Source of the DNA: Miltoncostaea marina
GTDB lineage: Bacteria; Actinomycetota; Thermoleophilia; Miltoncostaeales; Miltoncostaeaceae
NCBI RefSeq assembly: GCF_018141525.1
Contig: NZ_CP064655.1
Span: forward strand, 2,822,501-2,886,500
Reading direction: 5' to 3'
Length of the DNA: 64,000 nucleotides
The position numbers and the translations under genes are program-made. Shown here one piece after another: positions 52,302-60,759 of the stretch. Position 1 is the first letter of the stretch; the number at the start of each line of letters is the position of its first letter. The notes beneath the pieces were generated by a model. The model made no database searches, was not told the origin of the DNA, and saw only the letters and a list, made by a program, of their open reading frames with translations.

Positions 52302-52635
52302 ACGTGACGGCCCGGCAGCCAGCGTTGGGCGGCCGGTCGGGACGTGCTGAAGCGTCTTCCCTCGGGGCGCGGACGGGCCGGCCCGGGCCGCGCGTCAGGG
52401 GCGGCGCGCCGCGCAGCAAGGGGGCATGCCGCGCGGCGCGCCGCTCCGGCCACGAGCCCCCGGGCCCGGCGACCGGCGCTCTCTATGAAGGAGGTTCATC
52501 CGTCAAGGCGTCACTGATCGACCATCTGCCTCCGCGGGGCCGGGGTTTCGAGCGACGCTCGACGCTCTATCGCCTCCTCGCGGAAGGACCAGGTTCCATG
52601 GGAGTCGCTCCGGTGGCGCATCTCAGAGAGGGCCG
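52302..52635. other. Unassigned stretch before the IS110 gene
   Basis: About 330 bp without a supported gene. GAAGGAGGTTC at 52488-52498 looks like a strong ribosome-binding site, but no credible ORF follows. The right end of the IS110 element may lie here. Confidence 0.4.
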
Positions 52636-53689
52636 TCAAGCGGCCAGAGCGCGCGCGGCGCCTACCGGAGCAAAGGGCTCGTTGCGGGTGAGCATGTGCC
52701 AGATCGCCTCGGCCAGGCGCCGGCGATGTCGACCTGGGCGACCTTCGGCCCGCGCTGACGTCCCAGGCGCGCCTTGGTGCGCTGGTAGCGCGCGCGGTAG
52801 ACCGGGTGCCGGCACGCGTGGGTGGCCGCCTCCATGAGGGCCCAGCGCAGACAGCGGGGCCCGGCGTGGGTGAGCGGGCCGCGCCGGTCGGTGGAGCCGG
52901 ACTGGTAGACCCGCGGGCACAGGCCGGTGTAGCCGCACAGCGTGGCCGGGCAGGAGAAGCGGGCGATGTCGCCGATCTCGGCGCCGATCGTGTAGCCGAG
53001 CACCCAGGCGATCCCCGGGGCGCTCATCAGTAGCGGGACGTAGCGGTGATCGGCGCCCAGGGCGCGCAGCTCGCGGTCGATGCCGGCGATCTGACGATCG
53101 AGGTCGGCGATCATCTGCAGCGCGGCCTCGACCCCGCCGCGCCATGGCTCGGGGAGATCGAGCCGGCCCAGCAGCTCGCGCCCGGCCCGTCCGAACAGAT
53201 CCGACACCGGGCAGGCGTGGCCGAAGGCGAGCAGCTGAGCGTGGATGCGGTGCTTGAGCGAGGAGCGCTTTCGCACCAGGTAGAGGCGCCAGCGGGCCCG
53301 CTCACGTTCGGCGCGCTGGGCGAAGGCGGGCAGCCAGATCGCCGGGACCAAATCGCGACGGCTGAGCTCGGCCAGCACCCAGAAGGTGAAGGGGCTGGCG
53401 CCCCTGGCCGACCCGTCGCGCCAGACCGGCGAGCCCGCTTCGTCCCCGATGCGCTGGAGCGCTGCGGGCCCCGTTCATCGACTCGATCGCCGCCCAGGCG
53501 TCGATGCGATCGGTCTTACAGGCGAGCTCCACGGCCCCGTGACCATCCGGGGCGTCGGCGACCTCGACCTCCCACCCGCCGTCGGCATCCGGCAGGGCGG
53601 CGCCGGTCTCCCAGGCGCTCGCCCCGCTCATCAAGCAGGCAGTAGTCCAACCGCCTGCGGCTGAGATCCAATCCGGCATGCAGCATCAT
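52636..53689 (-). pseudogene. IS110-family transposase, scrambled and frameshifted
   Basis: The start is MMLHAGLDLSRRRLDYCLLDERGERL (RuvC-like DEDD N-terminus) at 53689. The C-terminal part is well preserved (MSAPGIAWVLGYTIGAEIGDI, FSCPATLCGYTGLCPRVYQSG, GPRCLRWALMEAATHA). Near 52723 one missing G breaks AQVDIA-RRLAEAIWHMLTRNEPFAP. Between 53383 and 53591 conserved blocks are out of order and two are inverted. The gene cannot make an active enzyme as read; misassembly is a real possibility. Confidence 0.85.
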
Positions 53690-53766
53690 GAGCGTGGGCC
53701 TCCTCCCGCTCGCTCCTTCGGTTCCACGCCGGAGCGTGGCACCGAGGAGGCCCTCCTTCATGACAT

Positions 53767-54282
53767 TCAGACGCGGTTGACCTCGCCGGTGATCGGCGTC
53801 GCATTCTTGGCGTTATCGAACATCGGAGACGTCCGCTCGGCCGCCTGGCGGATCTCCTCAAGCTGCGCAGGCGAGGCGTCGGAGTCGACCTGGACCGTAT
53901 AGCGGAGGCTCGTGAACCCGGGCCGGACGTCGTCGTCCAGCGCCAGATACCCGCGCAGGTCGTAATCCCCGGTTACGTCAATGCGCAGGTCTCGGAAGTC
54001 AATGCCACGCTTCGCCGCCTGCGTGACCCACCCGATCGTGAGGCACGTTCCCACGGAGGCAAGCAGCAGCTCCATCGGGTCGACCGCCTCGTCCGTTCCG
54101 CCGAGAGGCGCCGGCTCATCGGTCTCGATCGAGAACGAGCGGGCGACCGTTCGCGCGCGGGCCCCGTCCTCCCAGGACGTCACGGTGCTGAAGGTTCCTC
54201 GCCCGACCGTCGGATCCTCGGCCACGGCCGAGCGCGTCGTATCGAACGCGGACAGGTCAAGAGTAGTGCAGCTTCGTGCCAT
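53767..54282 (-). CDS. OsmC-family protein (copy 2), second cysteine lost
   Basis: This 171-residue OsmC-fold protein has the first redox cysteine C80 in LLLASVGTCLTIGW. The position of the resolving Cys reads ERTSPMFDN, i.e. Ser instead of Cys. It may use another thiol or have a different role. The upstream motif AACACCGTAGAGATT and GGATTTAGGAGG are shared with copy 1. The ATG follows TAGGAGGA at ideal spacing. Confidence 0.88.
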   Translation of the reverse strand: MARSCTTLDLSAFDTTRSAVAEDPTVGRGTFSTVTSWEDGARARTVARSFSIETDEPAPLGGTDEAVDPMELLLASVGTCLTIGWVTQAAKRGIDFRDLRIDVTGDYDLRGYLALDDDVRPGFTSLRYTVQVDSDASPAQLEEIRQAAERTSPMFDNAKNATPITGEVNRV

Positions 54283-54302
54283 GCCGTCCTCCTAAATCCT
54301 GG

Positions 54303-54317
54303 AACACCGTAGAGATT
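54303..54317 (-). promoter_or_regulatory. Shared OsmC upstream motif, site 2
   Basis: AACACCGTAGAGATT (minus: AATCTCTACGGTGTT) lies 21 bases before the second osmC-like start and runs into GGATTTAGGAGG. Fourteen kilobase-scale neighbours apart from site 1 show no such sequence; the proteins themselves are well diverged, so the motif is likely functional. Confidence 0.55.
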
Positions 54318-54555
54318 CTCAGGATAGCTCGTGTAAGCCGCCGCCGTGCCACGGGGGTCAGAGCGGGACCGCCGGCGGCAGGAGTCGCTCGTAGGTCGAG
54401 GGCGTATCCGAGGGTGCGGCGGTCCACTTCAGGCTCCCTGTGGGGCCCGGGAGTGTCGGTGCAGGGAGTCCGCCGACCAGACGGCTCGCTGGTCGGAGCT
54501 GGAGGCCGCGCACCAGGCCGCAGCTCCCGCCGGCGCACAAAGGCGCCAGCCAGCG
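54318..54555. other. Unassigned stretch between OsmC copy 2 and the P-type ATPase
   Basis: About 240 bp. Short frames only; I see nothing recognisable. The end of the ATPase gene nearby is also non-conserved. Confidence 0.4.
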
Positions 54556-56774
<2,219 letters not shown>

Positions 56775-57330: not shown

Positions 57331-58406
57331 ATGCCCAACGGGTTCACACGACGCCAGGTGATCGGCGGCCTCGCCGTCGGCGGTCCGCTGGCCGCCCTCG
57401 GCCTGACGGCGTGCGGGGGCGGGGACGACGGAGGAGCAGCCGTCGCAGCCGGTACCGCGCTGCCCACGGACCACGCGATGCCGCAGGAGGCGGACTTCGA
57501 CCCCGGCCCGCCGGTGAAGCCTCGGGAGCCGCACACAATCTTCCCGGCCGAGGCGCCACCGCGCTCCACCACCCGGCGCCACGAGATCGTCTTCGAGGTC
57601 GACGAGCACCTGCGCGAGGTCGCGCCCGGCCGCACGATGATGGCGTGGACGTTCAACATCCCGGGCCAGCCGGGGCGCGTCCCCGGCCCGGTCCTCCGGG
57701 TGACCGAGGGCGACCGCATCGACTTCACGTTGCGCAACACCGGGTCGCTGCAGCACTCGATGGACTTCCACGCGGCCAAGATCTCCTGGTCGCGGCACTA
57801 CCAGGCGGTCGACGTGGGCGAGGAGACGAGCTTCTCCTTCATCGCGAAGGTGCCCGGCGTCTTCATGTGGCACTGCGGCGTGCCGCCGGTGCTGCTGCAC
57901 GTCGGCCAGGGGCAGCACGGGATGATCATCGTCGACCCGAAGGACGAGTCGCTGCTGCCGCCGGCGCGCGAGTTCGCGCTCTGCCAGACCGACCTCTACG
58001 CCGGCAAGAACGGGGAGATCTCGGACTACGCCAAGCTGCAGGCCGGATCGCCGGAGTTCGTCGTTTTCAACGGCTACGCCAACCAGTACACCGGCGGGGA
58101 CGCCCTACGGATCAAGAAGGGCGAGCGCGTGCGCGTCTTCGTCCAGAACGCCGGCCCCAGCCGCTGGTCGGCATTCCACGTGATCGGCGCGCTCTTCGAC
58201 CGCGTCTTCGCCGAGGGCATCCACAAGGAGAACCTCACCCGGGGCTCGCAGACGGTGAACCTGGCGCCGAGCCAGGGCGCAGTAGTCGAGTTCACGGTCG
58301 AGGAGGAGGGCTCCTACCCTTCGTGACGCACGACTTCCACGACCACGCGAAGGGGGCCTTCGGGCTCTTCACCACGAACGGCGAGAAGACCGGCGGGGCG
58401 GGGTGA
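57331..58406 (+). pseudogene. NirK-like two-domain copper protein (Tat lipoprotein), one frameshift near the 3' end
   Basis: The N-terminus combines a twin-arginine motif (TRRQVIGG) with a lipobox (LGLTAC). Two cupredoxin domains show copper ligands: QHSMDFHAAK, FMWHCGVPPVLLHVGQGQHGM, AFHVIGALFDRVF and, after the shift, THDFHDHAKGA. These match the type 1 and type 2 sites of NirK-class proteins, although the H-to-M spacing differs. The frame breaks at CCC 58317-58319; one more C turns SYPS-stop into SYPFVTHDFHDHA and extends to 58406. The gene is probably intact in nature. Confidence 0.82.
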
Positions 58407-59856: not shown

Positions 59857-60759
59857 GATCAGGCGGCGGCGGCGAACCGGGCGGCCAGCTGGCGTGGCGG
59901 CCTTGTCGAGCGACCGGCGCGCGCGGTTGTACCGCATGGTCGTGCGCGGGTCGGCGTGGCCGGCGTCGTCCTGGACGATGTGCAGAGGGATGCCCGCGGC
60001 GAGCGCCTGCGTGACGAAGGTGTGCCGCATGGAGTGGGGCGACAGCGGCTTTGTTGATGCCCGCCTGCTTGGCGAGCCGGCACACGACGCGCCAGGCGAC
60101 GAAGCGGTCGAGCGGCTGGCCGTCGCGCCCGAGGAAGATCGGCCCGGTGGTGCGCGAGCCGATGGTCTGGGTGAGGGCGTGGAAGGTGGCCGGCGCCAGC
60201 GGGATGTTGATCTTGGAGCCGCCCTTGCGGGCGACGCGCAGGACGCGGTGGCCGAGCTCCTCGCCAAGATCCACTCAGCGCCGCAGATCTCCGATAAACG
60301 CAGCCCATTGAGGACGCCGAGGCAGGCGATCGCGGAGTTGCGCGGACCGGCCTCGTGGGCCGCCTCGAGGAAGCGCCGGACCTCACCCTCGTACATGCCG
60401 AGCCGCGGGGAGTCCTTGCCGAGCTTGGGGCGCTTCACGCGCTCGGCGGGCGAGCGGTCGATGAGGCCCTCGTCCACGGCGTAGTCGTAGAAGCCGGCGA
60501 GCGCCGACAGCCGCTGGGCGACCGTGGCCGGCGCGAGCTTGCGCACCTCCAGGAGCTCGAGGCGGTAGGCGTCCACGACCGCCCGCGAGGCGGCGAAGTG
60601 CGGGATCCCGTGCTGGTGCAGGAACCGGCCGAAGTCGTCCAGGCAGCGCTCGTAGGCGGCGCGGGTGTGCCCGGAGTGCGAAGCCAGTAAGGCGGCCTTC
60701 ACCTCGCTGGGCGTCTCGGGGTGGAACGTGGGAGCGCCGGTGGCGACTGATGTCGGCAC
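59857..60759 (-). pseudogene. Second tyrosine recombinase (XerC/D-like), frameshifted
   Basis: The N-terminal SAM-like domain is intact (SHSGHTRAAYERCLDDFGRFLHQHG ... SALAGFYDYAVDEGLI, abbreviated) and the catalytic R region reads GVLNGLRLSEICGAEW. There the frame changes (about 60275) to VDLGEELGHRVLRVARKGGSK. It changes back in AAA near 60048 to give KPLSPHSMRHTFVTQAL and DDAGHADPRTTMRYN (HxxR, H, Y). A third disturbance lies close to the end. It was a phage/transposon-type recombinase and no longer reads through. Confidence 0.8.

What the first reader, a model, noticed from the sequence alone, without database searches (positions are those of the whole stretch)
53383..53591. IS110 transposase gene with shuffled, partly inverted 25-35 bp blocks
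The family order, as I remember it, is PDADG-LAGLARRV-AIESMNGAR-FVxDALERxG-WEVEVADA-KVKGLAPLA-CKTDRIDAW-VLAELSRRD. On the minus strand here it reads PDADG, WEVEVADA, PDGHGAVEL, CKTDRIDAW, AIESMNGA, LAGLARR, then VLAELSRRD. KVKGLAPLA (53383-53409) and ARFVPDALERCG (53433-53468) lie on the plus strand. Blocks of k-mer size suggest faulty gap filling; if real, it would be a very unusual micro-rearrangement.
Basis: partly seen in the sequence, partly recalled or inferred. Interest (0 to 1): 0.75.

Follow-up and report, generated by a model that had tools for sequence, protein, structure and literature searches.

The report
Scrambled stretch in a dead transposase
A 200-base stretch of a broken IS110 jumping-gene copy is cut into seven pieces of about 30 bases that are all still present but in the wrong order, two of them flipped; no relative shows this, and only the raw sequencing reads can tell a rare real event from an error in the record.

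Summary
On the minus strand, 52605-53771 is a single-copy remnant of an IS110-group insertion sequence, 80-86% identical in protein to the closest copies in Conexibacter, Paraconexibacter and a related MAG. Eleven homologues share one block order. In the window, 53380-53575 is a signed permutation of that order: native 1-2-3-4-5-6-7 reads 5, 2, 7, 3, -4, 1, -6. The blocks are 25-33 nt and total 196 nt, exactly the native length; each occurs once. Five are unmistakable; two lie in a variable stretch and are assigned by protein motif and length. Eight control genes show no comparable rearrangement. The two catalytic-motif blocks (AIESM, CKTDRIDAW) are displaced, and the gene also carries two 1-nt frameshifts, so the recombinase is dead. 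A k-mer gap-filling error is not well supported: the locus is single-copy in a one-contig genome, and block junctions share more microhomology than blunt shuffling gives (22 nt against 7.7 +/- 3.4, P = 0.0014). A real event is hard to defend too: it needs at least six inversions, or a shattering that loses nothing, and the arrangement was seen nowhere else. I lean slightly to an artefact of the record (0.52) over a real microhomology-joined scramble (0.38). Raw reads or one sequenced PCR product decide.

The parts
52605..53378 (-). Collinear 3' part of the IS110-group recombinase gene (block H, VLAELSRRD onward, Transposase_20 domain); one-base frameshift near 52724
   Evidence: Alignment to L023/L029, PF02371 E=5e-20, ORF frames
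53380..53409 (+). Block F (QKVKGLAPLA), inverted; native 140-169
53410..53434 (-). Block B1 (LAGLARRV), native 1-25, displaced; variable stretch
   Evidence: protein motif and length; 163/20000 shuffles at the fixed place
53435..53467 (+). Block D (RFVPDALERCG), inverted; native 82-114
53468..53493 (-). Block C (AIESMNGA, holds the catalytic-motif Glu), native 56-81, displaced
53494..53520 (-). Block G (CKTDRIDAW, catalytic-motif Asp residues), native 170-196, displaced
53521..53550 (-). Block B2 (PDGHGAVELA), native 26-55, displaced; variable stretch, weakest assignment
   Evidence: length bookkeeping and HG-V-E motif; 951/20000 shuffles at the fixed place
53551..53575 (-). Block E (WEVEVADA), native 115-139, displaced
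53576..53578 (-). Three extra bases CGG at the outer junction, equal to native 112-114; with one extra G at 53379 they make the +4 nt
53579..53771 (-). Collinear 5' part of the IS110 element and gene start (block A, to PDADG); one-base frameshift near 53619

Best explanation
The thing itself is a dead, single-copy IS110-group insertion sequence lying just downstream of an OsmC gene. Inside its recombinase gene a 196-nt stretch is present as a signed permutation of seven 25-33 nt pieces. I think it slightly more likely than not that the permutation arose in the sequence record (assembly, consensus or later handling) and not in the cell. The element was an ordinary IS110 DEDD recombinase before that. 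Shown: family, permutation, single copy, loss of motif order, collinear controls. Inferred: that the cell's DNA has the native order.
For: Every piece is used exactly once and the pieces sum to the native 196 nt, which breakage or copying in a cell would hardly do. All 8 adjacencies are broken, with a reversal distance of 6 and a mixed inversion/transposition distance of 4, so it is not one or two events. The displaced conserved blocks show no decay of their own (E 25/25, G 27/27, C 26/26, F 30/30 bases seen in at least one homologue, 32/33 for D). The arrangement was absent from 299 genomes of the class and from IMG/VR by three junction patterns.
Against: Single-copy locus in a one-contig genome at 99.4% completeness, so no near-identical repeat is there to confuse an assembler. 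Genes elsewhere in the window align collinearly and almost without frameshifts to relatives. Junction microhomology is higher than blunt in-silico shuffling gives (P=0.0014). The scramble lies inside an element that is also frameshifted, where a real rearrangement would be tolerated.
Confidence: 0.52

Rival explanations
1. A real, recent micro-rearrangement of a dead IS110 copy. The stretch was broken or strand-switched at several G/C-rich short repeats and rejoined at 1-5 nt of microhomology, or rearranged by successive inversions between short inverted repeats such as CCCGC/GCGGG around block D and CCCAG/CTGGG around F-G.
For: Excess junction microhomology: 22 nt over 8 junctions, with three of 5 nt. 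Two blocks inverted next to matching 5-bp inverted repeats. Sits in a pseudogene near another frameshifted mobile gene. Single-copy locus and clean surroundings.
Against: No piece lost and none used twice; needs at least 6 inversions or 4 mixed events inside 200 bp; no intermediate or relative with any part of it found; no mechanism known to me for it in bacteria.
Confidence: 0.38
2. Short-read gap filling in which k-mer-sized contigs were placed in wrong order and orientation (the first reader's specific version of the artefact; its confidence is part of the 0.52 above, not additional).
For: Block sizes are narrow (25-33 nt; 28-36 nt with the shared ends).
Against: De Bruijn pieces would share k-1 bases, but the shared ends here are 0-5 nt. 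There is no second close copy to cause a gap.
Confidence: 0.15
3. An alignment illusion: ordinary decay of the pseudogene, with chance matches to motifs.
For: GC-rich sequence gives many short chance matches; blocks B1 and B2 alone are weak.
Against: Five blocks beat all 400 shuffles and tile the native coordinate without gap; eight control genes show no comparable rearrangement under a similar painter.
Confidence: 0.02

Closest known systems
IS110 family (DEDD recombinase, bridge-RNA-guided), copies of Conexibacter sp. DBS9H8 and Paraconexibacter antarcticus
   Same: Same length, 80-86% protein identity in the C-terminal 219-238 residues, same motifs, Transposase_20 domain
   Different: Motif order scrambled between PDADG and VLAELSRRD; two single-base frameshifts; one copy only
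Template-switch or microhomology-mediated complex micro-rearrangements
   Same: Short junction overlaps, inverted pieces
   Different: Those normally lose or duplicate segments (own knowledge); here every piece is kept once
Shufflons and DNA invertases (conservative site-specific inversion)
   Same: Conservative, lossless permutation with inversions
   Different: No recombination sites: pieces are about as short as such sites, and junctions share only 0-5 nt

Membership tests
IS110 family | C-terminal Transposase_20 (PF02371) domain | tested here: met
   E=5.1e-20, 72 bits against cut-off 21.3
IS110 family | N-terminal RuvC-like DEDD domain (PF01548) in normal order | tested here: not met
   No Pfam match for the frame that holds most of the scrambled region; catalytic-motif blocks displaced. 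The remnant is derived from the family, not a working member of it
IS110 family | DNA similarity along the whole element to intact copies | tested here: met
   about 75% over 53771-52605 to L023 and L029
IS110 family | Bridge RNA in a non-coding end | not tested
   Not needed for the finding; ends are short here
Shufflon / invertible segment | Recombination sites repeated at each junction | tested here: not met
   Shared ends 1,2,3,1,5,5,0,5 nt
Multi-copy repeat misassembly | Further near-identical copies in the genome | tested here: not met
   Other copies found with this protein as query are at most 38% identical; family scan

The most novel reading that the evidence does not exclude
A real, lossless shattering and rejoining of about 200 bp of a bacterial chromosome into seven roughly 30-bp pieces in new order and orientation, joined at microhomologies: a miniature bacterial counterpart of chromothripsis.
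Probability: 0.36. Interest if true: 0.8.

Novelty: not a real feature. Interest (0 to 1): 0.42.

Why it matters
If real, it would show that a cell can break a couple of hundred bases into about 30-bp pieces and rejoin all of them, which no repair or recombination pathway I know of predicts. If an artefact, it is a clear example of a base-level scramble that a one-contig, high-completeness genome can carry unnoticed inside a pseudogene. Either way the test is one sequenced PCR product or a look at the reads.

Tried and rejected
Chance: rejected by shuffles for five of seven blocks. A second shuffled relative: the 64-nt hit in G018 (L006), which seemed to span D-, B1 and F-, is a gapped chance match in an endonuclease-IV-like gene region. 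The hit at G000:529460 is a second OsmC gene, not an IS copy. Strand-switch copying as sole cause: unlikely, because copying would not visit every native segment once. Low sequence quality of the area: the window's other aligned genes are intact except one frameshift near 58314. Identifying the organism and its sequencing method: the genus looked like Miltoncostaea (a guess from kinship and size, not tested), and no held paper gave the assembly method. A literature search for scrambled IS110 pseudogenes and one for bacterial microinversion by template switching returned nothing.

Full report
Observation. The minus strand of 52605-53771 carries an IS110-group element. The downstream part of its gene reads through for 238 codons with a Transposase_20 domain. 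Relatives were found in public genomes and in genomes of the same class; 11 of them were aligned, and all have one order of blocks between PDxDG and VLAELSRR. A piecewise alignment that allows jumps and strand changes shows that the window's order differs: after block A (53771-53579) come E, B2, G, C, inverted D, B1, inverted F, and then the collinear remainder.

Bookkeeping. In native coordinates (1 = first base after the GG of PDxDG; 196 = last base before VLAEL), blocks C, D, E, F and G occupy 56-81, 82-114, 115-139, 140-169 and 170-196, without gap or overlap. B1 (25 nt) and B2 (30 nt) fill the remaining 55. The seven pieces sum to 196 nt, the native length in homologue L030. The block limits were set by hand within the ambiguity left by shared junction bases, so 'without gap' means that a lossless tiling fits, not that each cut is fixed to the base. 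B1 and B2 belong to a stretch that varies among homologues, so their DNA match is weak; their place rests on the motifs LAGLARRV and HG-V-E and on length. The two outer junctions hold three and one extra bases. As a signed permutation it is 5, 2, 7, 3, -4, 1, -6, at reversal distance 6, or 4 if transpositions count as single steps.

Junctions. Neighbouring blocks share 1, 2, 3, 1, 5, 5, 0 and 5 nt at the eight junctions, 22 nt in all. Random blunt permutations of the same sequence share 7.7 +/- 3.4 nt (P = 0.0014). Block D is flanked in native order by CCCGC and GCGGG, and F-G by CCCAG and CTGGG, which are short inverted repeats. This favours joining by short overlaps over a blunt shuffle. It is one test on one locus, so I give it moderate weight.

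Controls. The same window holds genes that align to a congener (G001) or another relative. One 7.4-kb stretch and several others are collinear, with a single clear frameshift near 58314. A similar painter with a single reference gave one segment in seven of eight control genes; the eighth (the ATPase) split once because its reference was cut short. The painter broke the IS110 gene into six segments. A nearby tyrosine-recombinase pseudogene (59.9-60.8 kb) has two frameshifts but normal motif order. The element is single-copy: other IS110-type genes found with its protein are at most 38% identical (family scan).

State of the gene. Besides the scramble, one-base frameshifts near 53619 and 52724 break the frame (from the frames, placed by eye). 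IS110 recombinases carry an N-terminal DEDD domain (PF01548) and a C-terminal serine domain (PF02371) (PMC11208160). With AIESM and CKTDRIDA moved out of order the former can hardly form. The element is dead, and there is no sign of a function for the scrambled order.

How it arose. Two readings remain. In an artefact of the record, the permutation never existed in the cell; the lossless use of each piece once and the absence of any other example favour this. In a real event, short-overlap joining or serial inversion produced it; the microhomology, the single-copy locus, the one-contig genome and the location inside a broken gene favour this. I lean slightly to an artefact. The 0.52 for the artefact as a whole includes the 0.15 given to gap filling in particular.

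Noticed in passing
window 57331-58406: Multicopper-oxidase gene with a probable one-base frameshift near 58314, about 30 codons before its end; the homologue in G002 reads through in one frame.
   Followed up: partly
window 59900-60759: Tyrosine-recombinase (phage integrase) pseudogene on the minus strand with two frameshifts but normal motif order.
   Followed up: partly
window 54270-54870: About 570 bp between OsmC and the conserved part of the P-type ATPase with no DNA relative in 199 genomes of the class (cut-off 1e-8); the ATPase frame runs on into it.
   Followed up: partly
window 53767-54282 and L002 1517-2031: Two OsmC paralogues in this genome, about 80% identical in DNA.
   Followed up: no
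L028 2001-3184: One Paraconexibacter antarcticus IS110 copy is followed by a partial second copy of the element's 3' part.
   Followed up: no
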